Below, piece after piece: positions 9,237 to 43,652 of a stretch of DNA of 64,000 bases (position 1 is the stretch's first letter; every line of letters begins with the position of its first letter). The notes under the pieces were generated by a model. That model worked only from the letters and a program-made list of their open reading frames with translations, was not told where the DNA came from and did no database searches. The stretch comes from a virus. Location of the stretch: positions 1 to 64,000 of the IMG/VR virus record IMGVR_UViG_3300046781_000054. One strand, written 5' to 3'. A program made the position numbers and the translations under genes.

Positions 9237-9265
9237 TGGCTATGCAATGCGTTATGGGTTACAGT
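9237..9265 (+). promoter_or_regulatory. Regulated promoter, ATGCGTTATGG family, site 1
   Basis: TGGCTA (-35), a 17-bp spacer TGCAATGCGTTATGGGT, and TACAGT (-10), 34 bases before the start at 9299. The spacer is identical to the one at 30219-30235 and differs by one base from that at 24141-24157. The shared spacer is the probable operator. Confidence 0.8.
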
Positions 9266-9298
9266 GGAGCTACCGCCGCATCCACCAGGGGGAACCCA

Positions 9299-9559
9299 AT
9301 GACTACCGCTACCCAGCCCGCCGTCACCCTCACCAAGGACGCCGTCACCCTCTACGACATCGAGCAGGGTGTGGTCTGGGACCAGATGAGCCACCGCCAG
9401 ACCCTCGCAGAACTCGCGGGCAGCAAGAGCGTCGGCGACACCGTCCAGGAGTACGAGACCACGGATCGCAACGGGCACCCCATGCGGGTCGTCCTTCAGG
9501 TCGGCGCCGAGGCGTACTACTCCGAGGACCAGGGCGGCATCTACGAGTTCACCCTCTGA
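9299..9559 (+). CDS. Hypothetical protein, 86 aa, first gene after regulated promoter
   Basis: Starts MTTATQPAVTLTKDAV, with AGGGGG before the ATG. The C-terminal half is beta-rich (HPMRVVLQVGAEAYYSEDQG). It is expressed from the promoter at 9237-9265, a member of the five-site family, and is followed by a strong hairpin at 9575, so it may be expressed singly. This suggests a dedicated early or control role, but no function can be read from the sequence. Confidence 0.75.
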   Translation: MTTATQPAVTLTKDAVTLYDIEQGVVWDQMSHRQTLAELAGSKSVGDTVQEYETTDRNGHPMRVVLQVGAEAYYSEDQGGIYEFTL

Positions 9560-9574
9560 CCCCCACCCCTACTG

Positions 9575-9607
9575 CTGCCCCGGCCCACCCCTCCAGGGCC
9601 GGGGCAG
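9575..9607 (+). terminator. Perfect 12-bp hairpin after the gene at 9299
   Basis: CTGCCCCGGCCC, loop ACCCCTCCA, GGGCCGGGGCAG. No T-run follows. The loop is C-rich like those of the two-hairpin modules at 261-1861. Confidence 0.6.
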
Positions 9608-9686
9608 CCCCCTACCCGAACCCGGGGCAACACCCCGCCCGAACCACGGCAACCTGAACACCCCGACCCTCAACGGGAGTCGCCCC

Positions 9687-9929
9687 ATGACCGAACCGGC
9701 CACCATCGGCAACCTTCCCGCCTCCACCGCCCCACTCGCCGACGGCTACCCACACGTCCACGGCACCTGCCCCGCCTGCCACCACACCGCCCTGTTCCTC
9801 GGCGTCGGCGGCCACATCACCTGCGCCACCGACACCTGCCCCGACTCCGACGCCGCGGGCAGACTCCTCGACACTCCCGACGGCGAAGACGACGCCATCC
9901 ACGACTTCCAGCCCCCGGAGGCCCGATGA
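9687..9929 (+). CDS. Zinc-ribbon protein, 80 aa
   Basis: Contains CPACHH at residues 28-33 and ITCATDTCPD about 15 residues later, so a Cys4 or Cys3His ribbon is likely. It overlaps the next gene by ATGA (9926-9929), the first of a long chain of coupled small genes to 12878. It may be a nucleic-acid binding adaptor. No specific family. Confidence 0.7.
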   Translation: MTEPATIGNLPASTAPLADGYPHVHGTCPACHHTALFLGVGGHITCATDTCPDSDAAGRLLDTPDGEDDAIHDFQPPEAR

Positions 9930-10339
9930 TCCGCGAGGACAAGTTCCTGATCTCTCGCAAGCCGTTCGCCGTCAACCTCGACAGCTTCCGCCGACGAGAG
10001 CGGGAGCCCGGCAACAGCTGGGCCTGGTTCACCGTCGACGCCATCTGGTTCCGCGGGACCAAGGACCAGCCCGTCGCCTGCATCGGCGACCTCCACACCC
10101 TGATCGACGACCCCGAGCCAACCACCGCGCAGGAGTTCCTTGAGCGGTTCACCGACGGACGCTATGGCGGCAACTGCGAAGGACGATGGAACGGCACCGG
10201 CTACTGGGGAGCCGAAGACCTCGACATCCAGAGGCAGCACCTCGCCGTCCTGAAGCCGATGCTCGCCAACTACCCGGCCCGGCCCGACGGCTGGGACGGC
10301 TGGTGGACGTTCCAGACCCCGAAGGGGCGGCGCCCCTGA
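9926..10339 (+). CDS. Hypothetical protein, 137 aa
   Basis: A Trp/Phe-rich alpha/beta protein starting MIREDKFLISRKPFAV, with WAWFTVDAIWFRG and a C-terminal GWDGWWTFQTPKG. One Cys pair is too widely spaced for zinc. Coupled upstream by ATGA and downstream by TGATG. Function unknown. Confidence 0.75.
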   Translation: MIREDKFLISRKPFAVNLDSFRRREREPGNSWAWFTVDAIWFRGTKDQPVACIGDLHTLIDDPEPTTAQEFLERFTDGRYGGNCEGRWNGTGYWGAEDLDIQRQHLAVLKPMLANYPARPDGWDGWWTFQTPKGRRP

Positions 10340-10509
10340 TGCACGCCGGGATATCCGACCTGCTGTGGATGTTCTACGCCGTCATCGCCTGGCACGCCCT
10401 CTACGCCGGCGCTGCGGCCACGATCCTCGTCCTCGGCGTCACCGCGGTCGTGTACAGCGTCCGCCACCGCACGACACCCCGCCCAGACGACTACAGGGAG
10501 GCCGCATGA
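10339..10509 (+). CDS. Small single-span membrane protein, 56 aa
   Basis: One long hydrophobic segment (LLWMFYAVIAWHALYAGAAA and onward to about residue 40), then a basic and charged tail (RHRTTPRPDDYREAA), so the C-terminus is probably cytoplasmic. TGATG joins it to the gene upstream and ATGA to the gene downstream. Role unknown; small membrane proteins of temperate phages often act in exclusion. Confidence 0.65.
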   Translation: MHAGISDLLWMFYAVIAWHALYAGAAATILVLGVTAVVYSVRHRTTPRPDDYREAA

Positions 10510-10793
10510 CAGCGTCCGCCCAGCTCGCCCTGGACGTGCCGCTTCCCAAGCCGCCCCCACCGCATCCTCCGACGTACTGGGAGAACCGCGGCCCCCACGA
10601 CTGGCAGCCCGTCCTCATCGTCCTCCGCTACGGCAACACCCGCGGCATGCCCGACCCCGCGTTCCCTCACGTACGCACGAAGCCGTCCGCACCCCGCAAC
10701 GTCTGCATCGAACGCGCCGACGGTGAACGGCTCGTCGTCCCCGTCCGCACCCTCCGCCGAGAGAACCCCAACGCCGGAAGGACCAGCCCGTGA
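10506..10793 (+). CDS. Hypothetical protein, 95 aa
   Basis: Pro-rich head (PLPKPPPPHPPTYWENR) and a compact beta-rich body (QPVLIVLRYGNTRGMPDPAF). One Cys. Coupled at both ends (ATGA and GTGA). No family recognised. Confidence 0.7.
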   Translation: MTASAQLALDVPLPKPPPPHPPTYWENRGPHDWQPVLIVLRYGNTRGMPDPAFPHVRTKPSAPRNVCIERADGERLVVPVRTLRRENPNAGRTSP

Positions 10794-11014
10794 CACCCCC
10801 AGCTCGAGCAGCCGGCACGGGGCGAGACCGCATGCCCCACCCGCCCTCGCTGGATCCCGGCTTCGTGGCGACCGCGAGTGTCGACGCGATCCGGGCCCAG
10901 TACGAGCGGGCGCAGCGCACGGCAGACCTGTGGGACGACCGGGCGCGAGCCCTGTTCCTGCTGCTCTGCCAGCGCGAGGAGCAGACCACCCAGCCCGAGA
11001 GGACCAGCACGTGA
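10790..11014 (+). CDS. Hypothetical helical protein, 74 aa
   Basis: GTG start after AAGGACCAGCCC. Residues 25-65 form one long helix (VDAIRAQYERAQRTADLWDD), which may be a coiled coil. The junction sequence before the GTG is repeated before the next four GTG-start genes. Function unknown. Confidence 0.65.
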   Translation: MTPPARAAGTGRDRMPHPPSLDPGFVATASVDAIRAQYERAQRTADLWDDRARALFLLLCQREEQTTQPERTST

Positions 11015-11379
11015 CCGGCACGCACTACGGCAACGACCAGATGGGCGCCCCCACCCTGCACCGCGGCCGCCTCGAGAACTGTCCCGCCCCCGACCGCCAG
11101 GACATCCTCACCGACCAAGCCGAGGAAGACACCACCCCGTACTGCACCGGCGATCGGTGCGGAGACTGCGAAGCACCCGACCCTGGTGACACCTACGGCG
11201 AGACCGACTGCTGCGAAGCCACCTGTGGCTGCTGCCCCCGCGTCAACGAACACGGCAACTGCGCCCTTGCCCCCGGCTCGGAAGACAACTCCAAGTACTG
11301 CGACCAGCACGGTGAGGGCTGGCTGTCTCCGCTGAACGAGCGGGCGCAGCGCATGTACGACGTCCTCCGCAACGCCTAA
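11011..11379 (+). CDS. Cys-rich protein, 122 aa
   Basis: GTG start after GAGAGGACCAGCAC. Residues 47-80 hold a dense Cys cluster (CTGDRCGDCEAP, DCCEATCGCCPR) and a later CALAPG and YCDQHG, enough for two or more zinc sites. No signal peptide, so the cysteines are probably metal ligands rather than disulfides. Family not recognised. Confidence 0.7.
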   Translation: MTGTHYGNDQMGAPTLHRGRLENCPAPDRQDILTDQAEEDTTPYCTGDRCGDCEAPDPGDTYGETDCCEATCGCCPRVNEHGNCALAPGSEDNSKYCDQHGEGWLSPLNERAQRMYDVLRNA

Positions 11380-11396
11380 CCCGAGAGGACCAGCCC

Positions 11397-11897
11397 GTGA
11401 CCGAGCAGCACGAACCACCGACCCACTGCTTTATGTGCAGCCACCCCGTCGAAGCCCACGACCAGGACGCGGACGGCAACCGCCCCTGCCGCTCCCCCGG
11501 CCACCCCAAGGGCGTCCCGTGCGCCGACTGCCGTGCCCTGCTCACCTCCGAGTACCGCAAGCGCCTTCAGGACGAACGGGAACAGCCCGGCTTCGAGAAG
11601 GCATGGCACGCGTTCCTCATCACCCGCGACGACGCTAGTCAGGCGTTCGGGGAGCACGCGCCTGTGTTCTTCACCGATATTCACCAGTCCGCTCTGGCTT
11701 CCGCGTTCATCCACTTCCGGGCAGCGGTACTGAAGCCCCTGGCGGACCTCCACAGCCCCGTACAGCACATGGGGCAGACCTGGTGCCGTGAATGCTCCGT
11801 CCAACGCTCTACGGGCCCGCACAGCGAGGAGTGGGTGGCGTACATCCCGCACCCCTGCCCCACCATCGACGCGCTCACCGAGAGGCTCCGCCCGTGA
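11397..11897 (+). CDS. Zinc-finger-containing hypothetical protein, 166 aa
   Basis: GTG start after GAGAGGACCAGCCC. The head CFMCSHPVEAHDQDADGN followed by CRSPGHPKGVPCADCRALL resembles small phage zinc ribbons; another CRECS lies near residue 132. The middle is helical. It is linked to the HIT gene by a GTGA overlap. The family-like N-terminus suggests nucleic-acid binding; not proven. Confidence 0.7.
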   Translation: MTEQHEPPTHCFMCSHPVEAHDQDADGNRPCRSPGHPKGVPCADCRALLTSEYRKRLQDEREQPGFEKAWHAFLITRDDASQAFGEHAPVFFTDIHQSALASAFIHFRAAVLKPLADLHSPVQHMGQTWCRECSVQRSTGPHSEEWVAYIPHPCPTIDALTERLRP

Positions 11898-12262
11898 CCG
11901 AACAGCCGTGCCCGTTCTGCGAGATCAACGTAGGGCACCTCCCCGCCACGTTCGTCGACGAGTGGTGCGACGCCTTCGCAATCGTCCCGATCAACCCCGT
12001 TGTCGACGGACACGTCCTCGTGATCCCGAAGACGCACACCCCCGACTTCGGCCACGACCCGGACGTGACCGCGGCCACGATGAAGCGCGCCGCCCAGTTG
12101 GCGCAGAAGTCGGACCAGCCCATGAACCTGATCACCAGTCGCGGTCGGGAGGCGACACAGTCCGTGTTCCATCTCCACGTGCACCTCGTTCCCCGCGCGG
12201 AGAACGACGGGCTGGCCCTGCCCTGGTACAGCGGCAAGCACTCGAAGAGGAGCAGCGCGTGA
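11894..12262 (+). CDS. HIT-family nucleotide hydrolase-like protein
   Basis: 122 residues from a GTG that overlaps the upstream stop. The head CPFCEINVG supplies a zinc pair, as in many HIT proteins; the core has VPINPVVDGHVLVIPKTHTP and the histidine triad HLHVHLVPR near the C-terminus. The family hydrolyses nucleoside phosphoramidates, dinucleoside polyphosphates or transfers nucleotides. Length and motif order are complete, so it is probably active. In a phage it may adjust nucleotide signals such as AppppA; substrate unknown. Confidence 0.88.
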   Translation: MTEQPCPFCEINVGHLPATFVDEWCDAFAIVPINPVVDGHVLVIPKTHTPDFGHDPDVTAATMKRAAQLAQKSDQPMNLITSRGREATQSVFHLHVHLVPRAENDGLALPWYSGKHSKRSSA

Positions 12263-12666
12263 CCGAGCAACTGCCTGAGACGACGCTGCTGGTCTGGTAC
12301 TGCGGACGATGCCGCAAGTCCTGCAAGGTCCAGCCGCCGGACGCCGAGCAGATCGCCTGCACGTGCGACACCCCCGTACCGAGCCTGCGCCCCACCCGTA
12401 TGACCGTCATGCACGCCCCGAAGCGGCGACCGGTACGGGCCATCAGCGACGAGGAAGGCAGGCTGCGGGCGCTCGGCCGGAAGGGCACACGCGTCCGCGT
12501 CACGTACGAAGGCGAGATCGCGGACGCCTGGGAGTGGTCCAACGGCATCTCCCGCGGCCTCGACTTTGTGGTCAAGTCACCCGACGGGCGCACCCACACC
12601 GTCAACGGCAGCCAGCCCGGCCTACGCATTGAAGCTATCCCGGCCGACGAGGAACCTGCGGAGTGA
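12259..12666 (+). CDS. Zinc-ribbon plus SH3-like hypothetical protein, 135 aa
   Basis: GTG start after GAGGAGCAGCGC. The N-terminus holds CGRCRKSCKVQ and ACTCDTP, a likely zinc ribbon. Residues 75-130 (GTRVRVTYEGEIADAWEWSN, HTVNGSQPGLRIEAI) look like a small beta barrel. Linked by GTGA at both ends. Function unknown. Confidence 0.7.
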   Translation: MTEQLPETTLLVWYCGRCRKSCKVQPPDAEQIACTCDTPVPSLRPTRMTVMHAPKRRPVRAISDEEGRLRALGRKGTRVRVTYEGEIADAWEWSNGISRGLDFVVKSPDGRTHTVNGSQPGLRIEAIPADEEPAE

Positions 12667-12878
12667 GGCGCCCGATCCGGAAGCGGGACCTGCAGGCCCG
12701 CATCGAGCGCCTGGAGAAGGCTCTCGGTACGCCGCTCCCCGCCCCGCTGCCGGGCCAGCAGACCATTCCCCTCCCCACCATCGGCCACCACGTGTACGAA
12801 GGCTCAGGCGGCGACTGTGAAGCCGAGTTCTTCGCCATCCCGTGCGGCCAACCCCGCGACGCCCACCACCACCCGTAG
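12663..12878 (+). CDS. Small coiled-coil protein, 71 aa
   Basis: GTG start overlapping the upstream stop. The head RKRDLQARIERLEKALGTPL is a short coiled coil; the rest is Pro-rich and ends with CGQPRDAHHHP, where Cys and His might bind metal. The next gene starts nine bases after its stop, with TAGGAG. No family recognised. Confidence 0.6.
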   Translation: MRRPIRKRDLQARIERLEKALGTPLPAPLPGQQTIPLPTIGHHVYEGSGGDCEAEFFAIPCGQPRDAHHHP

Positions 12879-12886
12879 GAGTAGCT

Positions 12887-13372
12887 ATGGCCGACGACCC
12901 GGAGCAGCGGACGGAGGCGCTCGCCGAACTCCTCTGCCACGCCTACGAGTACGGCGGCGGCCTCGAGGAGCAGCAGGCAGAAGACCCGCAGCGCGCCCAG
13001 GAACACCAGGGCGCGGCCGCGTTCCTGCTGTCCAAGCTGGAGCAGGCCCCGTTCAACGAGAAGCGGGCCGCGTTCCGCCGCGGCTACGACCGCGGCACCG
13101 AGAACGCGAAGAAGGCGGCCGCCGAGCACACCGCCCAGCTTGAGGCGGCGCTCGCCGAGCTCCGTCAGGACCGCGACCCCGACAGGCTGCGGGCCCGGAT
13201 CGCCGACCTGGAGTACGTCGTCCACGGCTACGGACGTCTCCACAAGCCCGGCACCGACCTGCGCGGCCAGCTCGCCGACGCCCTGGCCCGCCTTCAGGCC
13301 GCCCAACGGGAACTCGCCGAGCTGCGGGGTGTCCAGCCGTCCGACGCGACCGGGGAACGCCCCTCGGCCTGA
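12887..13372 (+). CDS. Coiled-coil hypothetical protein, 161 aa
   Basis: Start MADDPEQRTEALAELL after TAGGAGTAGCT. Residues 75-150 are strongly helical with heptads (AEHTAQLEAALAELRQDRDP, LADALARLQAAQRELAELRG). It is the last gene of the rightward run and ends one base from the stop of the convergent regulator gene at 13374. Function unknown. Confidence 0.75.
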   Translation: MADDPEQRTEALAELLCHAYEYGGGLEEQQAEDPQRAQEHQGAAAFLLSKLEQAPFNEKRAAFRRGYDRGTENAKKAAAEHTAQLEAALAELRQDRDPDRLRARIADLEYVVHGYGRLHKPGTDLRGQLADALARLQAAQRELAELRGVQPSDATGERPSA

Positions 13373-13373
13373 C

Positions 13374-14982: not shown

Positions 14983-15004
14983 ACGGCCCCCAGCCGGTCT
15001 ACCC

Positions 15005-22468: not shown

Positions 22469-23305
22469 TCAGGTGAAGCAGGAGGAGTTGTCGCAGGCGC
22501 CGTCGGCCTCGTCGAACATCGGCAGCAGGTCGACACCGTCCGGGATCGCCTGCGCCAAAGGCCGCGCGAACCGGGTCAGATAGACCGGGTCCTTCGGCTC
22601 ACCGTTCTTGTCGAGCAGCGTGCCCCGCCGCTCAATGACCGTGGCCTCCAGTTCGCAGGCCTTCGCGAACAGGTCGGGCCGCTCCCGGCGCAGGCTCTGC
22701 CATTCCTCGGGACGCTTCATCGGGCAGAACCAGCACGCCGACTTCGGCGGCAACGGCAGCCCCGCATCGAGGATGATGCGCTGGCAGTCCGTGCGGCGCA
22801 GACCCAGCTCCAGCAGCGGGTACACGGTGTTCTCGACTGCCGAGTTCCTGCGGTTGTTCGCACGGTGCATCTCGTCGACACTGATCCCGATGCCGACGGT
22901 GGCGGGCTGTTCGGCGGTCGCTCCCATGCGGATGAGCTGCTGCTCGATCAGCTTGATCTTGAAGTCTTTGGTGCAGTTCCGGTTCCCTGGCGCCCCGTTG
23001 TCCATCCGCATCGGGATGTCGATGGTGCGGCTGGGTCGCATCACCTGCTGGTAGAGAGAGCGTTCCTCTCCCGTGCGCTTCATGACCCGACGCAGTTCCA
23101 CGATCTCCAGGCCGTGCTGTTGCGCGTACGGCTTCGCGACGGTGTCGACATAGTCGAGGGTGCGGGGGTCTTCGCTGTCGTCGCCGACGTTGGCGAACAG
23201 GAACGTCTTGTAGGGGATGCGGCCCTGCGCGGCGAGAACCAGGAGCGCATTGGACTGTTGGCCGCCTCCGTAGCTGATGACGGCTATTCGATCCGTGGTG
23301 GGCAT
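22469..23305 (-). CDS. PAPS-reductase/DndC-like PP-loop protein
   Basis: 278 residues. The nucleotide-binding PP-loop SYGGGQQS lies at residues 10-17, followed by KTFLFANVGDDSEDPRTLDY, GNRNCTKDFKIKLIEQQLIR and a Cys motif SACWFCPMKRPEEW near residue 188. This is the PAPS reductase/ATP sulfurylase-like superfamily, to which DndC belongs; it adenylates or activates substrates, sometimes for DNA or tRNA sulfur modification. No other Dnd genes are visible in the window, so a complete phosphorothioation pathway is not shown. Ends in an acidic CDNSSCF tail. Confidence 0.8.
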   Translation of the reverse strand: MPTTDRIAVISYGGGQQSNALLVLAAQGRIPYKTFLFANVGDDSEDPRTLDYVDTVAKPYAQQHGLEIVELRRVMKRTGEERSLYQQVMRPSRTIDIPMRMDNGAPGNRNCTKDFKIKLIEQQLIRMGATAEQPATVGIGISVDEMHRANNRRNSAVENTVYPLLELGLRRTDCQRIILDAGLPLPPKSACWFCPMKRPEEWQSLRRERPDLFAKACELEATVIERRGTLLDKNGEPKDPVYLTRFARPLAQAIPDGVDLLPMFDEADGACDNSSCFT

Positions 23306-24134: not shown

Positions 24135-24163
24135 AACGTAACCTATAACGCATTGCATAGCAA
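24135..24163 (-). promoter_or_regulatory. Regulated promoter, ATGCGTTATAG variant, site 2
   Basis: On the minus strand TTGCTA (24163-24158), 17-bp spacer TGCAATGCGTTATAGGT, TACGTT (24140-24135). It drives the operon beginning at 24100. Spacer differs by one base from sites at 9243 and 30219. Confidence 0.85.
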
Positions 24164-24185
24164 TGGCTTTGTGGCATGAGAAAAG

Positions 24186-24769: not shown

Positions 24770-25936
24770 TCAACTCGCGCGCACGGCATCGGCCGGCGCG
24801 TCCAACTCGGTGTGGCCACAGAAGTGCGTCCGCGAGGCCCGCTTCGCCTCGAGCGTCTTGCCCGGCGCCCTCAACGGGCCCCCGGCATTGCGGTAGTTCC
24901 GGCCGCTCAGAATGTGATTCATCGTGTTCCGCGGAATGCCGTACTTCATGGCGAGCTGCGGCGCCGTGACACCACCCGCCGCGAACAGCTCCCGGATCTC
25001 CACGATCTGCTCGGCCGTGAACGTGCAGCGCGCCGGAGCCTTCAACGGGAACTCCTTACCCTCCCTCTCGTACTGGCGGCGCTGCCGCGACACGTACGAG
25101 GCGGTCGTGCCCTCCTTCAGGTTCCGCTCCCGGTCGATGTCCAGGTACGACATGCCCTTGCCCACGGCCAGCGCGATCGCCTCGACCTTCTGCTCCCTGG
25201 GCAGCCACACATCGCTCCCGGTAACCCACAGCTCCAGGTCGTTACCCGGGTCCTCAGGCTCCTCCTCAGGGGCGTCACCGTCGGCCAGCATCCGCCGGTA
25301 CGAGGCAAGCACGTCGTCCACCGCAGTCCGACCGATCCCCAATCGGGCGGCGATCTCCTTCAACGAAGCGCCCTCGTCCCGCCAACGGTGAATGTCCTCC
25401 GCCCGCGCGAACGCCCGCTCCTTCGCCGTCCCGCTCCGCAGACACGCAGCCGTCGGAGGCTTCCGCACCGGCACGTCCTCGCCGGCCAGACGGGCCGCCA
25501 ACCGCATCGTCGACTCACCCAGGCCCGGCTCGGCCACGTTCGCCACCGACTGGCCCACCGCCTGCGCCTCCAAGGCCAACAGGCGTGCCTCCTCGGCGTC
25601 GTACGGGCCATCGATGCGCTCGTCGACGAACAGCTGCGTGCGCTGCTCCCCTGTCAGGCCGGCACGGACCCCGTCCCGGTTCCACATGGTCTGCCCCTCC
25701 TCCGCCATGCGTGCTCGCAGGCATTCGTCGAGAACGGGGCAGGACAGGCACGTCTTGTGGGCCTTGGCTGTGAGAGCCGGGTTGTCGCCGTCCCACCACT
25801 CCATGGGCCGGTTGAAGCACGCCGAGCGGTCTTCCCAGGAGGTGGTGAGGGATTCGGGGCGGCGGCGCCAGTCGGCGGCGTGGCTGACGGCTTGTGCTAT
25901 TGGGCGGCCAGTTCCGTTAATGGTGTGGGTGGTCAT
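24770..25936 (-). CDS. WhiB-like iron-sulfur domain fused to several HTH domains
   Basis: 388 residues. Residues 34-100 form a WhiB-type domain: Cys at 40, 63, 66 and 72 (CLSCPVLDEC), expected to hold a 4Fe-4S cluster, and DGVRAGLTGEQR in the place of the GVWGG turn. The following 290 residues contain sigma-70-like or resolvase-like HTHs (about 178-212: ASLKEIAARLGIGRTAVDDV; 318-360: VTAPQLAMKYGIPRNTMNHI) and a middle motif with YLDIDRERNLKEGTTASYVS. Ordinary WhiB proteins are only 80-130 residues and depend on SigA, so the extra DNA-binding part is unusual. Redox-sensitive control of phage genes is possible. Confidence 0.82.
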   Translation of the reverse strand: MTTHTINGTGRPIAQAVSHAADWRRRPESLTTSWEDRSACFNRPMEWWDGDNPALTAKAHKTCLSCPVLDECLRARMAEEGQTMWNRDGVRAGLTGEQRTQLFVDERIDGPYDAEEARLLALEAQAVGQSVANVAEPGLGESTMRLAARLAGEDVPVRKPPTAACLRSGTAKERAFARAEDIHRWRDEGASLKEIAARLGIGRTAVDDVLASYRRMLADGDAPEEEPEDPGNDLELWVTGSDVWLPREQKVEAIALAVGKGMSYLDIDRERNLKEGTTASYVSRQRRQYEREGKEFPLKAPARCTFTAEQIVEIRELFAAGGVTAPQLAMKYGIPRNTMNHILSGRNYRNAGGPLRAPGKTLEAKRASRTHFCGHTELDAPADAVRAS

Positions 25937-26394
25937 GTCGTGGCTCCGGGCGGGTTGAGGAGTGCGAGGTGGTCGGGGTGGATGGAGTCGAGGTCGGTGA
26001 TCCACAGGACGAGTTGGGAGCCCTTGACGGGGGTGCCGATGCGGGGGTCGGGGCCGAGGAGGCGTTCACTGTTGTCGTCGGGGAGGATTCCGGCGTCCAC
26101 CAGGCCGTCGACTGCGGCCTTTGCTGACGGGGCCCAGTTGCCGGGGTCGCGGCGTTGGATCTGGGTGTCGGGGTGGATGACGAAGTAGATGTGGGCGCGC
26201 TGGAGGGCGGGGATTTTGCTGTGTCGTGCGGTGGCCCAGGCGGCGTTGCGGATGACTTTGACGAGTTCGGCTTTGCGCCTGAAGTGGAGGCTCTGGTTGG
26301 CGTTGATGAGTTTGGTCTTGGGCGGGAGGGCGAGGCGCCAGGATTGGGGGCGGGTGATGCCGCCGTGGCTGGTCTCTGGGCTGGTCGTGGTCAT
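25933..26394 (-). CDS. rusA: RusA-like Holliday junction resolvase
   Basis: 153 residues. Core motifs: HIYFVIHPDTQIQRRDPGNW, then VDGLVDAGILPDDNSERLLG, with acidic residues where RusA has its metal site, and a final beta segment. The family cuts Holliday junctions. The ATGA overlaps with both neighbours place it in the early recombination operon together with ssb. The symbol is by family resemblance, not proof of orthology. Confidence 0.8.
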   Translation of the reverse strand: MTTTSPETSHGGITRPQSWRLALPPKTKLINANQSLHFRRKAELVKVIRNAAWATARHSKIPALQRAHIYFVIHPDTQIQRRDPGNWAPSAKAAVDGLVDAGILPDDNSERLLGPDPRIGTPVKGSQLVLWITDLDSIHPDHLALLNPPGATT

Positions 26395-29782: not shown

Positions 29783-30145
29783 TCAGGTGATGGGGCGGGG
29801 GTGGTCGTGGCCGCAGGGCGGGCACTGGAGGGCGCTCAGGTTGCAGTCGGGGGCGTTGGGGGCGGTGACGACGACGCCAGGCTCGTGGGCGTCGAAGATG
29901 GCGCCGCAGCCGCAGCCCTCGGTGAGGCAGTCGCAGACGGCGATGTCGTGGGAGTCGGGGGCGGCCATGCCCGCGGTGTGGGCGGCTTCGTCCATGGCCT
30001 CGCGGTACGCCTGGCCGGTGCCGGCGTGGTCGGCGCGGTTCATCCAGTGGTCGAAGGCGTCGCGCTGGGCCTGCGTCAGCGACGTGTAGTCGGCGGCGAT
30101 GGGGAGGGTGACGGTCTGGATCGGGGCGTGCGTCATCACGGCCAC
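29783..30145 (-). CDS. Cys-rich protein heading the 30145-24233 operon, 120 aa
   Basis: GTG at 30145, with GGAG upstream; GTG 30139 or ATG 30136 are alternatives. A helical head, then CDCLTEGCGCGAIFDAHEPG and a C-terminal CPPCGHDHP give at least one zinc ribbon. It is the first gene behind the regulated promoter at 30213-30241 and stands upstream of whiB-HTH, rusA and ssb. Function unknown. Confidence 0.7.
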   Translation of the reverse strand: MAVMTHAPIQTVTLPIAADYTSLTQAQRDAFDHWMNRADHAGTGQAYREAMDEAAHTAGMAAPDSHDIAVCDCLTEGCGCGAIFDAHEPGVVVTAPNAPDCNLSALQCPPCGHDHPRPIT

Positions 30146-30212: not shown

Positions 30213-30241
30213 ACCGTAACCCATAACGCATTGCATAGCAA
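30213..30241 (-). promoter_or_regulatory. Regulated promoter, ATGCGTTATGG family, site 3
   Basis: On the minus strand TTGCTA (30241-30236), spacer TGCAATGCGTTATGGGT (17 bp), TACGGT (30218-30213). It drives the operon from 30145 to 24233. The 29 bases match the site at 24135 except at two positions. Confidence 0.85.
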
Positions 30242-30269
30242 TGGGTGCGCATGATGCGGGCATGAGAAA

Positions 30270-30672: not shown

Positions 30673-31224
30673 TCAGGTTGCACGTGCGGCGAGTCTTTCC
30701 TGGCGCTCGATGTGCTCGTGGGCCAGGTGTGCGAGCGTCCAGGTGGATGCCCGCCCGTCGGGGGTGCGGCAGTTGTGGTTGCGGCACACCGCGCGCTGGA
30801 CGGCGTCGCGCCAGTGGAGGCCGACGGTGCCGCAGCCGGGGCAGCGGTGCCGGCGGACGACTTGGGCGTCGCCCGTCATCGTCGCGTGCTCCAGGTACTG
30901 CCGGTAGATGATCGTGTCGCGGCGCCGCTTGGCCGTGTCGTCGTCCGTGGCGGTGTTGCGGACGCACCAGTCGTAGACCGCGGCCGCGGTGTGGGGCAGC
31001 GGTTCGAGGGTGCCGGGCGATTCGGCGTGCATGTAGTCGCGGATCTCGCGGACGGACGCGTCGATGTGGGAGACCGTGTCGATGTTGAGGGGTGCGGTGT
31101 TCTCGATGCTGCGGACGGGGGCGGTGCGGCCGGTGCGGCGGCCGGCGGGGAGTTCCACGAAGTGCTGGACGAGCTTGGTGAGTTGCGAGGCTGCTTGTGC
31201 TGCTGCGCTGTCCGTGTTCTCCAT
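30673..31224 (-). CDS. Zinc-ribbon hypothetical protein, 183 aa
   Basis: Start MENTDSAAAQAASQLTKLVQ with GGGGAC upstream. A helical head, then CPGCGTVGLHWRDAVQRAVC and RNHNC (a ribbon) and a tail rich in Glu, Arg and Ala. Reads as a DNA-binding or polymerase-associated adaptor but no family is recognised. The 237 bases between 31225 and 31461 hold a palindrome at 31440 and no convincing gene. Confidence 0.65.
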   Translation of the reverse strand: MENTDSAAAQAASQLTKLVQHFVELPAGRRTGRTAPVRSIENTAPLNIDTVSHIDASVREIRDYMHAESPGTLEPLPHTAAAVYDWCVRNTATDDDTAKRRRDTIIYRQYLEHATMTGDAQVVRRHRCPGCGTVGLHWRDAVQRAVCRNHNCRTPDGRASTWTLAHLAHEHIERQERLAARAT

Positions 31225-38651: not shown

Positions 38652-39481
38652 GCGGCAGCCTCCACAGGCGTGGTCGGAACAGACGGAGAGGGGAACACAG
38701 TCACCGAACCGCCCGGGCGGGCCTCGGCGTCGAACAGATCCAGCTCAAGCTGGCCGGCGATCGCAGCGAACTTCGACGGCTTCGGACGCACACCCCGCGT
38801 CCGCGACGGGCCGGCCGGACGCGTCGGCTCGTCCTCCCGCACCCGCGACAGCGCGGGCACCGTGCCGTCATCCCGGCGCACCACCCACCCCGGCGCCAGC
38901 AGCCCCCGCGCGGCCGCCTTGTCGATCAGCTCGTTCCGCGTCGCGGTCTTCGACAGACCGAGCTTGTCCAGGAGCCGGGACCGCTGCCAGTTCGTCGTCC
39001 GCAGCGTCAAACCGGTCACCCGGGCTATCACCCGCACATCCGCGTACTTCACGACCGCCCGCAGCACCTTCTGTGTCTGCTCCGTCGCGAAGTACTCATC
39101 CGGGGCCTCCCGCGGCACCTGCCTGCTCCGCGCCGCAATGACCTCCCTCGACCGGTCCAGGGCGCGCATCCCGCCGAGGATGCCCTCCCGCTCGATCAAC
39201 TGCCCGTCCGCGCCCACCGCCCGGCCGACCGCCAGGCACTGCACCATCACCGGACACGACACACAGACGTCGATGGCGGCCTCCTCGCGGGCCCGGCGCA
39301 CCGCCTGCGGCTCACCTCCGTCCCCGGACTGTGCAGTCCACGCATCCACCGACAGGCCCGGATTCCCCGCCGCACGCCGCGGATCATCCACATCGGGGGC
39401 GCACCCGCGGTACCGGTAGTGCGGATGCCAGGTCAACGCCTCATACGGCGACTTCGGCAACATCGTCTTGCTCGGGCTCAC
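38648..39481 (-). CDS. Second WhiB-like domain fused to an HTH region
   Basis: 277 residues from a GTG that overlaps the upstream TGA. Cys at 27, 73, 76 and 82 (CVSCPVMVQC) plus EGILGGMRALDRS in the GVWGG position make a WhiB-type iron-sulfur site; the gap between the first and second Cys is longer than usual. Residues about 128-190 form HTHs (YFATEQTQKVLRAVVKYADV, RVIARVTGLTLRTTNWQRSR, GLSKTATRNELIDKAAARGL). It is a second phage WhiB fusion besides the one at 24770. Role in controlling phage or host transcription inferred. Confidence 0.75.
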   Translation of the reverse strand: MSPSKTMLPKSPYEALTWHPHYRYRGCAPDVDDPRRAAGNPGLSVDAWTAQSGDGGEPQAVRRAREEAAIDVCVSCPVMVQCLAVGRAVGADGQLIEREGILGGMRALDRSREVIAARSRQVPREAPDEYFATEQTQKVLRAVVKYADVRVIARVTGLTLRTTNWQRSRLLDKLGLSKTATRNELIDKAAARGLLAPGWVVRRDDGTVPALSRVREDEPTRPAGPSRTRGVRPKPSKFAAIAGQLELDLFDAEARPGGSVTVFPSPSVPTTPVEAAA

Positions 39482-39723
39482 TGGTGGCCCCCTTCCTGCA
39501 CAGTGGACTGGCTCGTAGACGGGACCGGCCCGCCCGCCATAGCGGCGGCACGGGCCAGCTGAAGTTCGCGTTGATGGTCGGCGTGGACAACGTGGTCGAC
39601 GAGCCGGCGCCCGGCCCGCTCCGCCCTCAGGTCCTGCTCGAGCGCGCCGACACGACGCACCAGCCAGACGACAGCCCAGCCCGCGGCGAGGACCGTGAGA
39701 CTGGCACGTATTCGGTGGGACAC
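39478..39723 (-). CDS. Small single-span membrane protein, 81 aa
   Basis: GTG start. Short basic head, hydrophobic RASLTVLAAGWAVVWLVRRV, then a charged helical region (LEQDLRAERAGRRLVDHVVH). Membrane-anchored with the body in the cytoplasm. Function unknown. Confidence 0.6.
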   Translation of the reverse strand: MSHRIRASLTVLAAGWAVVWLVRRVGALEQDLRAERAGRRLVDHVVHADHQRELQLARAAAMAGGPVPSTSQSTVQEGGHQ

Positions 39724-39765
39724 GGGTCCTCACCACCTCTCTATCTGGGGAAGGGAATTCGGGGG

Positions 39766-40095
39766 TCACTGCTGCGGCTTGGACGCCTTCAAGAACTCCT
39801 CGAAGGCGATCAGTTCCGCCTCGTGCACGACCGGCTCGCCCGCGTCAGCCGCTGCCTGCAACTGGGCGCGGTGGGCTGCCTCCCACGCGACCTCGCCCTC
39901 GAGAGCCGCCTCGTCGGCGCGCAGTCGGTCGATTGCCTGCTCCACGCTTCCCGGATACACATCCGTCGGGAGTACTCCGCGGGCCCGGGCACGACGCCGG
40001 CGCCACGCGGCGAACGCACCGACCAGCCACACCCCGCACAGGATGAAGACGGTGCCGAGGGCGATGAGCCAGTTGTAGAAGGTGTCTTCGTTCAC
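39766..40095 (-). CDS. Membrane-anchored helical protein, 109 aa
   Basis: GTG start after GAGG. One membrane helix (WLIALGTVFILCGVWLVGAF), an Arg patch (AAWRRRRARARG), then a helical tail (ALEGEVAWEAAHRAQLQAAA). Resembles the 39478 product in layout, so the two may act together. Function unknown. Confidence 0.65.
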   Translation of the reverse strand: MNEDTFYNWLIALGTVFILCGVWLVGAFAAWRRRRARARGVLPTDVYPGSVEQAIDRLRADEAALEGEVAWEAAHRAQLQAAADAGEPVVHEAELIAFEEFLKASKPQQ

Positions 40096-40204
40096 GGCGG
40101 ACCTCGTTTCAGGCAAGGGGGAATCCCCGACTGGCGAACTGGTGAGGTGAAGCGGGTCCGGTGGGGCGGACGGGCGGGGCACTCAGACGTCCCCGCCAGG
40201 GGTG

Positions 40205-41548
40205 TTACGCGGCCGAGGCCAGAGCGTCCTGCAGAAACGGCACCCCGGTGGCGGCGGCCACGACGTGCGCGGCCAGGAGGGGCGGAACAGCGTTACCGAT
40301 CTGCTCGTACGCCTTGGTCTTCGTGCCCTGCCACGGATAGTCCTCGGGGAAGGACTGGAGGATCGACCCCTCCGGGACGGTCAACATGCGGCTCTTGTCG
40401 CCGTCCGTGAACACGTACTCGTTACGAGCGTGCCCGAACGCCAAGGTTGCGGCCGGCTCGGACATCGTGCGTACCGTGGCGTTGGCGCGGGCGTTGTGCT
40501 TGAGAACCCACTGCCCACCGGATTTGCTGGTAAGTGCGGGTGCGGGTGCGGTGTGCGGGTCAATCGTCTGCCGCGAACCGTCAGGCTGCTGATTCCGATT
40601 CGTGTGCAACGTCCACGACCGGGCCCTCGCCGTCAAAGCCTGCGACGGCTCATCCACCGGGAACTCGTTGCCGCCCTGCGTCTTGCGCTCACCGCGAGTG
40701 TTCACGATGAGGCTCGGGACCAGGCCGAGCGCGTCGGCCATCGTCACGTACTGCGGACGAGCCTCACCGAACAGATCCTCGGCCTCGATCTCCTTGCTGT
40801 GCGTCGGCGCCGGCGGGCCCATGGGACGCACGGCCGAAGCCAGGAGCACCGCACGCCTACGGGTCTGCGGCACTCCGTAGTCCGCCGCGTTCAAGACGCC
40901 CGACCACACGAACCAGCCCAGCCTGCGCAGCTCCTCGCCGTACACCTTCCACAGCGGCAGCACACCCGGCACCTGCTCGAACGCCGCCCACTCCAACGGG
41001 ATCCCGGCGGACGTGTCGCCGGTGGTCAGCTCCCACAGGTAACGAGCCGGCTCCAGCACCAGCACCGTCACGAACGCGTCCTCCCGCGCCGCCGCCTCCA
41101 CCTGGGCGACCGTCCAAGGCCGCTTGCCCTTCGCTACACGCTCGGCGTTGTCCGCCTCCTGCTGCGCCAACGCGACCGGGAAGATCCGCTCCCGCAACTC
41201 CTCGCGGCAGTCGTCGCCGCGCAGCATCCGCTGGATCCCGTCGGCGAGCAGGCCCATGACCCGCATGCCGAACTGCTTGCCGGCCGTGGAGAACTTCGTG
41301 CACGGCGGCGAGAACAGCAGTCCCCACACCTGGCCCACGAGCGGCGTCAGGACGAACGAGGAGACGTCCACCCGGACCGTCGTGTGCCCGGCAGCCCTAC
41401 GCGTCTCACAGGCCGCCGCATCCCACTCCAGACCCACATCCGTCAGGCCCAGCCAGCGGCGTATGCCTTCCGACCAGCCGCCCGGGCCAGCGCACCCGTC
41501 GAGGATGAGGCCCTTCTGCTGCGGCGCCCACCCGGCGAACACGGCCAT
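40205..41548 (-). CDS. C5 cytosine-specific DNA methyltransferase
   Basis: 447 residues. Motif I is LDGCAGPGGWSEG (residues 16-28), the catalytic loop is SPPCTKFS (80-87, Cys 83), QTRRR stands in the middle, and YEQIGNAVPPLLA closes the fold near the C-terminus. Between them a target-recognition region of ordinary size. It starts on TGATG from the Rad52-like gene. No restriction partner is visible, so it is probably an orphan enzyme that protects phage DNA or alters regulation. The recognised sequence is unknown. Confidence 0.92.
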   Translation of the reverse strand: MAVFAGWAPQQKGLILDGCAGPGGWSEGIRRWLGLTDVGLEWDAAACETRRAAGHTTVRVDVSSFVLTPLVGQVWGLLFSPPCTKFSTAGKQFGMRVMGLLADGIQRMLRGDDCREELRERIFPVALAQQEADNAERVAKGKRPWTVAQVEAAAREDAFVTVLVLEPARYLWELTTGDTSAGIPLEWAAFEQVPGVLPLWKVYGEELRRLGWFVWSGVLNAADYGVPQTRRRAVLLASAVRPMGPPAPTHSKEIEAEDLFGEARPQYVTMADALGLVPSLIVNTRGERKTQGGNEFPVDEPSQALTARARSWTLHTNRNQQPDGSRQTIDPHTAPAPALTSKSGGQWVLKHNARANATVRTMSEPAATLAFGHARNEYVFTDGDKSRMLTVPEGSILQSFPEDYPWQGTKTKAYEQIGNAVPPLLAAHVVAAATGVPFLQDALASAA

Positions 41549-42510
41549 CAGGCGGCGCTCCCCTCGGGTGTCTTGGTGGGCTGCAGTTCGGTGATCCGGG
41601 CCTCGAGCAGTGCGTCGAACGTGGTCCAGTTGCTCTCGGGCGGCGGACCCTGCACGCTCCGTTCGGACACCGCGTTCTTCTTGCCGTCCAAGCGGATCTG
41701 CAGCAGCGCCGTCGGGTTGTCCCAGCAGTTCCGGTACTGCGCGATCAGGCGCGCCAGAGGATCCTCGTCGGGCGCCGAAGTCGGCGGAGCCTGGTGAGCG
41801 TGCTCGCGGGCCTGCTCCGGCTCCGTACGGGCCGGTGCCGACTGGCCGCCCTGTTCCGCTGCCTCTCCGCCTCCGGACTCCAGGATCTCCAGGTCGGATG
41901 ACGTCCACAGATCCAGGGCCATCCCGAAGCGCATCCCCGCGTTACGGATCGCATCGCCGATGATCTCCTTCACGGCGTTCGCGCCGTCCTTACCGGTCGC
42001 GTCGCCGTACCCGATCCGCGTCATCCCGCACACCGTCATCCGGATCCACAGCCCGCGGTTCCCGTCGTACTGGGGAAGCCCGCTGCCATCCAACGCCAGC
42101 GGCAGCCAGTCCCAGAACGGATCCACGTTCAGCAGCCGGTTCGTGGCCTCGGCGTGCCCGATGTACTTCAGGCAGATGTGCGCCTCGGTGATTTTCTGGT
42201 TGTTGCAGCGCTGGCAGCGGATCTCGTTGTGGTTCTGGCACACCTTGGGCCAGCCCTGTGTCTGGCTGCACTTCTTGCACCAGGGCTGCGGCCGGTACCG
42301 CACTTCGCTGGTCGGGAACGGCTCCCGCAGCCGGTGCAGGGCCTCCATCTGCTCGGCCCGCGTGTAGCCGTACGTGCCGGAAGCGTTGGCCTTCTGCTCC
42401 TCCAGCCGCTCCAGACGGGCGACGAGGGCTTCCAGATCCGGGTTCGGGGTGTGCGAGGTCAGACCCTCCGCGATGCTGCTCTGTGCGGGGGCCTCAACGG
42501 CTTGCGCCAT
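41548..42510 (-). CDS. Rad52-like single-strand annealing protein with zinc finger
   Basis: 320 residues. Near residues 80-115 a zinc region (CKKCSQTQGWPKVCQNHNEI and CQRCNNQK), then the annealing core: YIGHAEATNRLLNVDPFWDW, MTVCGMTRIGYGDATGKDGA and NAVKEIIGDAIRNAGMRFGM. The C-terminal third is a disordered linker and a helix. This matches the phage Rad52/Sak type. It anneals ssDNA in phage recombination, probably together with SSB at 24233. It is coupled to the methyltransferase downstream. Confidence 0.85.
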   Translation of the reverse strand: MAQAVEAPAQSSIAEGLTSHTPNPDLEALVARLERLEEQKANASGTYGYTRAEQMEALHRLREPFPTSEVRYRPQPWCKKCSQTQGWPKVCQNHNEIRCQRCNNQKITEAHICLKYIGHAEATNRLLNVDPFWDWLPLALDGSGLPQYDGNRGLWIRMTVCGMTRIGYGDATGKDGANAVKEIIGDAIRNAGMRFGMALDLWTSSDLEILESGGGEAAEQGGQSAPARTEPEQAREHAHQAPPTSAPDEDPLARLIAQYRNCWDNPTALLQIRLDGKKNAVSERSVQGPPPESNWTTFDALLEARITELQPTKTPEGSAA

Positions 42511-42583
42511 GAGGGTTTCTCCTATGGGGTTATGCAGGGTGCGGGGCGGCCCACCAATCCGGGGGCCGGCATCCCGCCCCCGA

Positions 42584-43477
42584 TCAGTCGGTTCCGGCCG
42601 TCAGGCCGTACTCCTCGTCAAACAGCTCTTCCAAGCCCAACTCGTTCGCGAGCCAGCCCGTACCGATCGTCTGCGGCGACACCCGGTACTTCAGCGTCTG
42701 CTGCAACTCGGCCGCCTTCACCCGCACCGACGCGAACAGTTCCGCATCCACATACGGGCTCAACAGCTTCCGCTCGTACGTCGACCCGGGCGCTGCCTTC
42801 GGCACCGGCCACGGCTCCCACTCACCGGCGAGAACCTTCCGCAGACCCTCCTCAACGATCCGCCGCAACTCCGAGTCCGTGTTGTCCAGCCCCGCCAGAA
42901 TCGCAGCATGCAACTGCGGCGGCACCGGCATGTTCATCAGAGCCAGATCACTCTTCGGCACCTCGTAGGCGACACCGAACTCCTCGCACAGCAGCGCCGT
43001 CGCCATCTTCGGCACCGTCGCCTTCGCCTCGTACCCCAGCCGCCGGCCGATCTCCGCGACCTGATCCCGCATCCGAGCCAGCAGCTCCATGTCGACGGGC
43101 ACGTTCAGGTTCACGCGTTCCACGGCGGAATTGCGGGGGCTGCGCGGAATCTCGACCGGCTCGGCCTCACCGTCCAGGACAGCCCTGAACCGGTCGTTGA
43201 GGGCCTTGCCCAGCAACGCGGACACGCTCTTGCCCGGCTGCTTGGCCGCGCTCTGCAGAGCTGCACGCAGCGGCTCCGGCATCCCGATCGCCAGGTTCTG
43301 CGTCGTGTCCTCACTCAGATCGCCGGCGCGCTCGTCGTGCTGCAGCATCCGGAACCCGAACGGGGAACGCAGCTCCTCCAGCGTCGCGGCAACCTCGGGC
43401 AGTTGCCCCTCGACGGCGTCAGCGGCCAGCTTCAGGTGCTCGCGGACGGTCTCAACACTCTTGCTGCGGCGGGGCAC
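42584..43477 (-). CDS. Regulator with four tandem RHH-like repeats
   Basis: 297 residues. The GTG at 43477 has GAGAGGA eight bases upstream; an in-frame ATG at 43558 lies inside the promoter. Four ribbon-helix-helix-like units occur at residues about 59-101 (NLAIGMPEPLRAALQSAAKQ), 119-169 (RVNLNVPVDMELLARMRDQV), 177-218 (LALMNMPVPPQLHAAILAGL) and 236-287 (KLLSPYVDAELFASVRVKAA). Repeats 1 and 3 are short, 2 and 4 long, as if a two-unit block had doubled. RHH proteins act as dimers, so this would be a single-chain double dimer. Its own promoter carries the operator motif. Confidence 0.7.
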   Translation of the reverse strand: MPRRSKSVETVREHLKLAADAVEGQLPEVAATLEELRSPFGFRMLQHDERAGDLSEDTTQNLAIGMPEPLRAALQSAAKQPGKSVSALLGKALNDRFRAVLDGEAEPVEIPRSPRNSAVERVNLNVPVDMELLARMRDQVAEIGRRLGYEAKATVPKMATALLCEEFGVAYEVPKSDLALMNMPVPPQLHAAILAGLDNTDSELRRIVEEGLRKVLAGEWEPWPVPKAAPGSTYERKLLSPYVDAELFASVRVKAAELQQTLKYRVSPQTIGTGWLANELGLEELFDEEYGLTAGTD

Positions 43478-43546
43478 GGGGCGGGTCCTCTCGGCGGAGC
43501 GCCCGGTGCGGCGGTGCGGCGGGCGCGTGGGGGTATTGGCCACGCC

Positions 43547-43575
43547 ATCATCCTCCATAACGCATTGGTGGACCA
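43547..43575 (-). promoter_or_regulatory. Regulated promoter, ATGCGTTATGG family, site 4
   Basis: On the minus strand TGGTCC (43575-43570), 17-bp spacer ACCAATGCGTTATGGAG, GATGAT (43552-43547), leading to the RHH-repeat gene with a 5-prime leader of about 65 bases. Confidence 0.75.
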
Positions 43576-43623
43576 GAGGCGGCTGGTGCCGTCCCGGTGG
43601 TCACGACGATACGCACAAACCCC

Positions 43624-43652
43624 TTGCTTGTCCATGCGTTATGGATTACGTT
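43624..43652 (+). promoter_or_regulatory. Regulated promoter, ATGCGTTATGG family, site 5
   Basis: TTGCTT, 17-bp spacer GTCCATGCGTTATGGAT, TACGTT; drives the WYL gene at 43687. It faces away from site 4, with about 50 bases between the two -35 boxes. Confidence 0.82.

What the first reader, a model, noticed from the sequence alone, without database searches (positions are those of the whole stretch)
9237..43652. Five promoters share one operator in the same frame: a phage-wide regulon
At 9237, 24135, 30213, 43547 and 43624 a -35 and a -10 are separated by exactly 17 bp, and the spacer carries ATGCGTTATRG in each case. Sites 24135 and 30213 differ at two of 29 bases. They precede two long leftward early operons (SSB, RusA, WhiB-HTH, NERD, PP-loop protein), a single gene at 9299 and the two divergent regulator genes. 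The spacer position of the motif means one protein could switch all five.
Basis: seen in the sequence. Interest (0 to 1): 0.88.

Follow-up and report, generated by a model that had tools for sequence, protein, structure and literature searches.

The report
Phage-plasmid repressor and its operators
This virus, which lives in Streptomyces as a plasmid, appears to control its early genes and its own control genes with one DNA-binding protein that sits on a short repeated DNA sign inside each promoter, and related viruses keep the sign in the same places but spell it differently.

Summary
ATGCGTTATRG occurs five times in the 92,058-bp record, outside my called genes, 22-86 bp before a start codon; shuffles give 0.005 copies. 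Four copies sit in 17-bp spacers of plausible promoters. The fifth (43547) does not: its "-10" lies on the repressor gene's ribosome-binding region. The record is a pZL12-like Streptomyces phage-plasmid. Relatives carry a dyad, TTGC-N3/4-GCAA with lineage-specific arms, over the -35 of the same promoters; dyad plus -10 occurs 59 times in 18 genomes against 0-5 in shuffles. The dyad recurs between two divergent genes (perfect core in 21 of 28 loci; 6 of 2000 shuffles): a repressor candidate, here predicted to hold four ribbon-helix-helix units, and a lone WYL domain. Operator spelling beside the pair follows the RHH protein (r=0.53), not the WYL protein (r=0.02). Best reading: an autoregulated RHH repressor holding early operons off, with diversified specificity as in phage immunity groups. 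Binding is untested; operators far from the pair do not single out the RHH gene.

The parts
9237..9265 (+). promoter TGGCTA-N17-TACAGT with operator (11-mer at 9247-9257); heads gene 9299-9559
24135..24165 (-). promoter TTGCTA-N17-TACGTT with dyad operator CATTGC-TAT-GCAATG and arm CGTTATAG; heads the leftward genes from 24100 (PAPS reductase-like, LuxR-like)
30213..30243 (-). promoter TTGCTA-N17-TACGGT with dyad operator and arm CGTTATGG; heads the leftward genes from 30145 (RusA, WhiB-HTH, SSB). The first gene follows an operator in 17 of 18 genomes by BLAST clustering
43624..43652 (+). operator O1 and promoter PR (TTGCTT-N17-TACGTT) of the WYL gene; the window's core has 2 mismatches to TTGC/GCAA
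43606..43634 (-). promoter PL (TGGACA-N17-TATCGT) of the RHH gene; its -35 is the right half of O1, so the two divergent -35 boxes overlap
   Evidence: counterpart TANNNT in 27 of 28 loci (the scan read the window's as ATGGAC-N18)
43555..43575 (-). operator O2 in the leader of the RHH gene, ending on its Shine-Dalgarno; not a promoter in this frame; carries the 11-mer, but its dyad fails the criterion
42584..43543 (-). RHH repressor candidate, 319 aa from GTG 43543 (or 324 aa from ATG 43558); four beta-alpha-alpha units predicted
43687..44112 (+). standalone WYL-domain protein, 141 aa
24233..24751 (-). SSB gene, last gene before operator 24153 in the leftward series headed by 30231
24770..25936 (-). 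WhiB-like plus HTH protein
25933..26394 (-). RusA-like resolvase
22469..23305 (-). PAPS-reductase-like (PP-loop) protein

Best explanation
The leftward gene at 42584 encodes a ribbon-helix-helix (RHH) repressor. It binds dyad operators laid over the -35 box and spacer of the early promoters and blocks RNA polymerase there. One operator (O1) carries the -35 boxes of both divergent promoters of the regulator locus, so the same protein would hold the WYL gene off and limit its own synthesis; a second operator (O2) in its leader would add a roadblock. In the plasmid-prophage state this would keep the SSB/RusA/WhiB operon, the 24100 operon and gene 9299 silent. Different lineages carry different RHH proteins with matching operator arms, as expected of immunity groups. 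Shown: operator layout, its recurrence, the predicted RHH fold, association of operator spelling with RHH sequence. Inferred: binding, repression, lysogeny maintenance, heteroimmunity.
For: Dyad plus -10 sites: 59 in 18 genomes against 0, 2, 2, 1, 5 in five shuffle rounds and 4 in reversed sequence (my sum of its per-genome counts). At the regulator locus the best dyad core is perfect in 21 of 28, 1 mismatch in 3, 2 mismatches in 4; in 2000 shuffled regions from 10 loci it is perfect in 6. A leftward TANNNT on the dyad's other half in 27 of 28. Eight further Streptomyces loci: core perfect in 5 and 1-2 mismatches in 3, TANNNT at 17/18 bp in 7, and an RHH-family gene beside the WYL gene in 8 of 8 by tblastn. 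The first gene after the 30231 operator also follows an operator in 17 of 18 genomes. The 319-aa protein is predicted as four beta-alpha-alpha units, pLDDT 83; module 1 matches F-plasmid relaxosome chains (Z 8.8, rmsd 3.4, 98 aligned) and single-chain Arc (Z 6.2, rmsd 3.1, 80 aligned). O1 distance follows RHH distance (r=0.53, P=0.0002, 26 loci), not WYL distance (r=0.02, P=0.36). Pairs with RHH identity of 55% or more have mean O1 distance 3.3 (17 pairs), pairs with WYL identity of 70% or more 9.7 (91), all pairs 9.7 (325). Distal operators, 17 genomes: r=0.39, P=0.0002 for RHH; r=0.085, P=0.21 for WYL. Of the eight new loci, the two whose RHH is 83% and 73% identical to a known one have O1 distance 1 and 0 to that locus, and 9 and 11 to their best WYL match.
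Against: No binding, expression or immunity data. Distal operator spelling also follows gene 30673 (r=0.43), DciA (0.44), genes 27468, 45244 and 55916 (0.40-0.49) and, more weakly, several virion genes (0.23-0.31, P 0.01-0.04); with gene 30673 or DciA held constant the RHH term is not significant (P=0.13, P=0.055) while those genes keep P=0.011. O1 lies next to the RHH gene, so linkage helps its correlation. Counter-examples: the closest distal operators of all (W06/W14, 3.0) go with RHH 30% identical; W08/W09 (5.6) with 29%; W05/W15 have RHH 60% identical but distal distance 13.7. In the six new loci with RHH at or below 50%, the best RHH match predicts O1 no better than the best WYL match (my means: 8.8 and 8.5). 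The bare 'at most 2 mismatches' criterion for O1 is weak: 818 of 2000 shuffled regions pass. The rightward -10 is TANNNT in 20 of 28 loci, CANNNT in 5, none in 3. The window's own O1, O2 and 9247 dyads are imperfect. RHH family profiles score below cut-off, and Foldseek's best PDB E-value is 0.043.
Confidence: 0.72

Rival explanations
1. The RHH protein binds these operators but is a Cro- or Arc-like lytic-phase shut-off regulator, not the immunity repressor; another protein maintains the prophage.
For: In relatives the gene just behind it is often annotated as a Rad52/ERF/Bet-type recombination protein, which looks like lytic DNA metabolism; the window's own gene there (41548-42510) has no Pfam hit. 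P22 Arc, an RHH protein, is a lytic regulator (recalled).
Against: Diversified matching operators are what immunity groups show (PMC6550527, passages read). The same leftward region holds ParA, ParB and DciA genes, functions of the plasmid state; whether they are in one operon with it is not known.
Confidence: 0.25
2. The operators are bound by another phage protein (for example the product of 30673-31224, found in 17 of 17 relatives), and the RHH-WYL pair is only one of its targets.
For: Distal operator distance follows gene 30673 at least as well as RHH (r=0.43 vs 0.39; partial P=0.011 vs 0.13).
Against: For O1 the partial test goes the other way (RHH P=0.0003, gene 30673 P=0.14). 30673 has no Pfam hit and no operator near its own start. 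RHH is a DNA-binding fold.
Confidence: 0.15
3. The conserved block is not an operator but promoter sequence for a phage or alternative sigma factor, or a binding site for a MerR-like activator.
For: The block covers -35 and spacer and precedes early operons.
Against: Spacing is the ordinary 17-18 bp, not the 19-20 bp of MerR-type promoters (recalled); the sequence is a dyad whose arms change between lineages while TTG and the -10 mostly stay; O2 carries the motif without a promoter.
Confidence: 0.06
4. Chance or shared ancestry of five promoters without a common regulator.
For: Sites 24153 and 30231 are nearly identical and could be a recent duplication.
Against: 0.005 copies expected; the layout recurs with different sequence in relatives, so the layout and not the letters is kept.
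Confidence: 0.02

Closest known systems
Cluster A mycobacteriophage immunity repressor with operators and stoperators (L5, Bxb1, Trixie)
   Same: One repressor, several sites in one genome, promoter-located operators, lineage-specific operator spelling matched to the repressor (PMC6550527, passages); Cluster A includes extrachromosomal prophages (PMC7157519, passages).
   Different: There the repressor is helix-turn-helix, sites are 13-bp and asymmetric, 20-30 per genome and mostly outside promoters. Here the protein is predicted RHH, sites are dyads, about 3-6 found per genome and mostly at promoters.
F-plasmid TraY and P22 Arc (RHH proteins)
   Same: Tandem RHH units in one chain: module 1 aligns to F relaxosome chains (which I take to be TraY from recall; the listing does not name the chain) and to permuted single-chain Arc.
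   Different: The window protein has two such modules plus an Arg/Pro-rich N-terminal tail and a helical segment; no significant sequence match; different operators.
Streptomyces plasmid-phage pZL12 and plasmids pSLE1, pSAM1
   Same: Same RHH-WYL divergent pair with an O1 dyad.
   Different: Operator arms differ (pZL12 distal sites: CGTATTGC-N3-GCAATACG). The records call the RHH gene a hypothetical protein.
WYL-domain regulators DriD, PafBC, BrxR, CapW
   Same: WYL fold: Z 11.5 to PafBC, 10.3 to BrxR, 10.1 to DriD bound to ssDNA, 10.0 to CapW bound to ssDNA; the related Hfq/Sm fold follows at Z 8.6.
   Different: DriD carries its own DNA-binding domain (for the others recalled); here the WYL domain stands alone beside a separate RHH gene.

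Membership tests
Ribbon-helix-helix DNA-binding proteins | beta-alpha-alpha fold | tested here: met
   four beta-alpha-alpha units predicted; fold matches to F relaxosome chains and Arc; a prediction, not a solved structure
Ribbon-helix-helix DNA-binding proteins | sequence match to a curated RHH model above its cut-off (usual, not defining) | tested here: not met
   Pfam Antitox_RHH 12.8 bits (cut-off 27.2), RHH_5 10.5 bits (cut-off 26); PHROG Arc-like repressor E 0.29
Ribbon-helix-helix DNA-binding proteins | sequence-specific binding by the beta sheet | not testable with these tools
   needs binding assays
Temperate-phage immunity regulon | operators at early promoters and at the repressor's own promoter | tested here: met
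   as sequence sites:
Temperate-phage immunity regulon | operator spelling varies with the repressor | tested here: inconclusive
   O1: met (close RHH pairs). Distal sites: correlated but not unique to RHH
Temperate-phage immunity regulon | repressor alone confers immunity | not testable with these tools
   no experiment
pZL12-like phage-plasmids | partition genes together with capsid, terminase and tail genes, about 90 kb | tested here: met
   ParA, ParB, DciA, integrase; capsid, portal-like, terminase, tape-measure homologs; record 92,058 bp
pZL12-like phage-plasmids | circular replicon | not tested
   ends of the record were not examined
WYL-domain proteins | WYL domain | tested here: met
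   Pfam 29.8 bits, cut-off 21.8; fold
Cluster A stoperator systems | many sites outside promoters that stop elongation | tested here: not met
   only one of five window sites (O2) lies outside a promoter core

The most novel reading that the evidence does not exclude
A split lysis switch: the standalone WYL domain, folded like the ssDNA-binding WYL domains of DriD and CapW but without a DNA-binding domain, is the damage sensor that takes the separate RHH repressor off its operators; the repressor half is swapped between phages for new immunity while the sensor half is kept.
Probability: 0.25. Interest if true: 0.8.

Novelty: new variant of a known kind. Interest (0 to 1): 0.62.

Why it matters
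WYL relatives of this switch lie on 37 Streptomyces plasmid records, 27 of them 86-102 kb, yet the paper searches made here listed no account of how such prophage-plasmids stay silent. This names a candidate repressor, its operators and a set of natural specificity variants, so that immunity groups, superinfection and induction can be tested directly. It also offers an RHH family with many protein-operator pairs, useful for working out RHH recognition.

Tried and rejected
Exact 17-mer search of IMG/VR: five hits, about what chance allows in a collection of that size (own rough estimate), not pursued. Direct search for the 324-aa protein in viral contigs and phage records: none; six weak plasmid matches; relatives were reached through the conserved WYL neighbour. 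The plain dyad scan without a -10 is useless on its own: 255 hits against 365 in reversed sequence. Perfect ATTGC-N3-GCAAT alone occurs in only 10 of 24 records, because the centre is 3 or 4 bp and arms vary. The number of RHH modules did not go with centre length, by eye. A direct repeat GTTAYGG-GTTACGG seen by eye in the window sites was set aside as probably the -10 itself. Profile searches of solved structures gave weak hits only, among A1's five a VapB26 antitoxin and an archaeal-virus protein that I take from recall to be RHH. The viral-structure search gave 6 matches with E 0.001 or less, of low TM-score, and some entries named RHH below that. WYL was considered as the operator binder and set aside: no DNA-binding domain found, and its distance does not follow the operators. 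The founding pZL12 paper is not held, so that it describes a repressor cannot be excluded.

Rows dropped and hand work: one search used 26 loci (L020 left out as duplicate of L019, L023 as the same record as L033, L021 for a short RHH frame, L036 for no clean RHH frame); eight of its 26 O1 operators were set by hand because the script had not found them; L031 and L032 RHH were read from within the frame. One search used 28 loci (L020, L023 and L025 left out as duplicates). Distal analysis: 52 sites in 18 genomes, 17 genomes in the correlation (W11 left out for lack of a clean RHH frame); one weak W03 site removed and seven sites added by hand in W03, W13, W14, W16, W17; the window's 9247 site was not included. 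W17 was scanned over 100,000 of its 102,011 bases. Of 37 plasmid records with the WYL gene I fetched 16, plus phage ZL12. Of 12 genome-contig loci, L124, L125 and L129 have the contig lengths and about the identities of L015, L016 and L024 and were taken as repeats, and L134, a metagenome contig, lacks the layout; 8 were counted. In one search my ORF choice for the RHH gene failed in 3 of 8 loci; one search repeated it by tblastn.
Full report
What was checked. Dinucleotide shuffles of the record give 0.005 copies on average (200 shuffles, maximum 1). All five lie outside the genes of my own gene call and point at a start codon 22-86 bp away. A position weight matrix made from the five finds no sixth site of comparable strength: the five score 37.5-55.4 bits, the next 12.4 (the five match by construction).

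What is wrong in the observation. At 9237, 24135, 30213 and 43624 the motif sits in a 17-bp spacer between a TTG/TGG-type -35 and a TANNNT -10. At 43547 it does not: the supposed -10, GATGAT, lies at 43547-43552, touching the ribosome-binding sequence of the leftward gene, and the -35 TGGTCC is weak. The leftward gene has a better promoter upstream, TGGACA-N17-TATCGT (-35 43629-43634, -10 43606-43611), whose -35 is the other strand of the 43624 operator. So there are four promoter operators, one of which (O1) serves two divergent promoters, and one leader operator (O2).

Where it comes from. In a megablast of 24 kb of the window against phage records the only match is Streptomyces phage ZL12, over 197 bp of ParA at 77%. 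The gene right of the divergent region encodes a lone WYL domain (Pfam PF13280) with relatives in 12 IMG/VR loci, 37 Streptomyces plasmid records, 27 of them 86-102 kb, phage ZL12 and further Streptomyces contigs. The window's record has ParA, ParB, DciA and integrase genes and capsid, portal-like, terminase and tape-measure homologs: a phage-plasmid.

What the motif is. I took the DNA of 16 plasmids and ZL12. Between the WYL gene and the divergent gene lies a dyad TTGC-N3/4-GCAA whose left half serves as the WYL promoter's -35 and whose right half, on the other strand, as the -35 of the divergent gene. Over 28 loci the best dyad core is perfect in 21, has 1 mismatch in 3 and 2 in 4. Shuffled regions from 10 of these loci give a perfect core in 6 of 2000 but a core with at most 2 mismatches in 818 of 2000, so the perfect cores carry the weight. 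A leftward TANNNT fits in 27 of 28; the rightward -10 is TANNNT in 20, CANNNT in 5 and absent in 3. A second dyad, 13-23 bp from the divergent gene's start, meets the loose criterion in 23 of 28; the window's own O2 misses it but carries the 11-mer. In two of the 28 loci (L021, L036) the divergent reading frame is short or unclear. Eight further Streptomyces loci found later have O1 with a perfect core in 5 and 1-2 mismatches in 3, with TANNNT at 17/18 bp in 7 of 8. Genome-wide, dyad plus -10 occurs 59 times in 18 genomes, against 0, 2, 2, 1 and 5 in five rounds of shuffling all 18. Arms differ by lineage: CGTATTGC-N3-GCAATACG in ZL12 and W02, TGCATTGC-N3-GCAATGCA in W09, ATAACCCATTGC-N4-GCAATGGGTTATGG in W12, CTTACCTGTTGC-N4-GCAACAGGTAAG in W11, ATTCCTATTGC-N4-GCMATGGGAAT in W04 and W13.

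Conserved position. The gene that follows the 30231 operator (29783-30145) also follows an operator in 17 of 18 genomes by BLAST clustering, about 75-104 bp away. An SSB match lies within 9 kb downstream of that operator in 15 of the 16 relatives in the cluster (not W10). In the eighteenth genome (W11) the operator at 63947 has WhiB and SSB matches 4.7 and 5.2 kb downstream, but its first gene did not join the cluster. Eight genomes share another first gene behind a second operator, with a LuxR-like gene 1.9-8.2 kb downstream in six of them; the window's 24153 first gene joined no cluster.

Which protein. The divergent gene product is poorly conserved: over its first 200 residues 21-34% identical to the window's in 16 genomes. 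It matches RHH families only below cut-off. AlphaFold2 with 11 sequences gives four beta-alpha-alpha units (pLDDT 83); the first pair aligns to chains of the F-plasmid relaxosome (Z 8.8, rmsd 3.4, 98 residues) and to permuted single-chain Arc (Z 6.2, rmsd 3.1, 80 residues). Foldseek's own best E-value is 0.043, and the tool warns that Z under 8 can be a common arrangement. I read the relaxosome chains as TraY from recall. Some relatives have one module and some two.

Does operator spelling follow a gene? For O1 in 26 loci, distance follows the RHH protein (Mantel r=0.53, P=0.0002), not the WYL protein on the other side (r=0.02, P=0.36). Seventeen locus pairs with RHH identity of at least 55% have mean O1 distance 3.3; 91 pairs with WYL identity of at least 70% have 9.7, as do all 325 pairs. 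Clear cases: L018 and ZL12 have RHH 94% and WYL 45% identical and O1 distance 3; L013 and the window have WYL 81% and RHH 30% and O1 distance 9. In the eight new loci, the two with a close RHH match (83%, 73%) have O1 distance 1 and 0 to it, against 9 and 11 to the best WYL match; the six without one (50% or less) show no such rule. Operators far from the locus follow RHH too (17 genomes, r=0.39, P=0.0002) and not WYL (r=0.085, P=0.21). Against: gene 30673, DciA, genes 27468, 45244 and 55916 follow them as well (r 0.40-0.49), several virion genes weakly (0.23-0.31), and holding 30673 or DciA constant removes the RHH signal for distal sites, while for O1 RHH keeps it. The closest pair of distal operators (W06/W14) has RHH only 30% identical. 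So the data favour the RHH protein without proving it.

Mechanism. An RHH protein on a dyad over the -35 and spacer would block RNA polymerase. At O1 it would close both divergent promoters, giving autoregulation and control of WYL; at O2 it would be a roadblock. The WYL model (pLDDT 69) has the fold of WYL domains in PafBC, BrxR, DriD and CapW, including entries bound to ssDNA (Z 11.5 to 8.7), with Hfq next at 8.6. DriD is activated by ssDNA bound in its WYL domain (PMC12340889, passages). A WYL protein without a DNA-binding domain, next to a repressor and under its control, could be the inducer; this step is inference only.

Literature. Ten searches of open papers (two of the lists, 82 and 85, showed only part of the hits) listed no paper on a repressor or operators in pZL12-like elements, as far as titles and abstract starts show. 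Passages of PMC4487206 (pSLE1), PMC7157519 (which calls pZL12 a singleton without close relatives), PMC12889140 and PMC10023795 mention pZL12 or phage-plasmids without such an account. The founding pZL12 paper could not be read.

Verdict.

Noticed in passing
L025 (W01) 7569 - strand; W07 (CP075614.1) 88551 - strand: A second, different dyad (GGGTTGC...GCAACCC) with a nearly identical promoter tail ending TCTTTCTTGGCACA in two plasmids; that tail was not found in the window's record or the other 15 genomes. Possibly the operator of another regulator.
   Followed up: partly
W12 (NZ_CP046906.1) 86631, 86961, 87030: Three close copies of ATA-TTGC-GAC-GCAA-TAT without a -10, within about 410 bp.
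   Followed up: no
window 29783-30145 and its counterparts: First gene of the SSB operon keeps an N-terminus like M..AVMTHA in most genomes and its distance to the operator, although the protein is only 32-60% identical where tblastn found it (14 of 17).
   Followed up: partly
window 30673-31224: A 183-aa protein of unknown family with Cys/His spacing like a zinc ribbon (by eye), found in 17 of 17 relatives; its divergence follows distal operators as well as the RHH protein's does.
   Followed up: partly
window 42584-43558: The repressor candidate most likely starts at GTG 43543 behind GGAGG, not at ATG 43558; the N-terminus is Arg/Pro-rich (like GRPPRGPR in relatives), resembling an AT-hook (resemblance recalled).
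   Followed up: partly
L018 and L040: RHH proteins 94% identical beside WYL proteins 45% identical: recombination between the two divergent genes.
   Followed up: yes
plasmid records over 150 kb (10 of 37): The WYL gene also lies on ten larger Streptomyces plasmid records (154-411 kb); whether these hold integrated phage-plasmids was not looked at.
   Followed up: no
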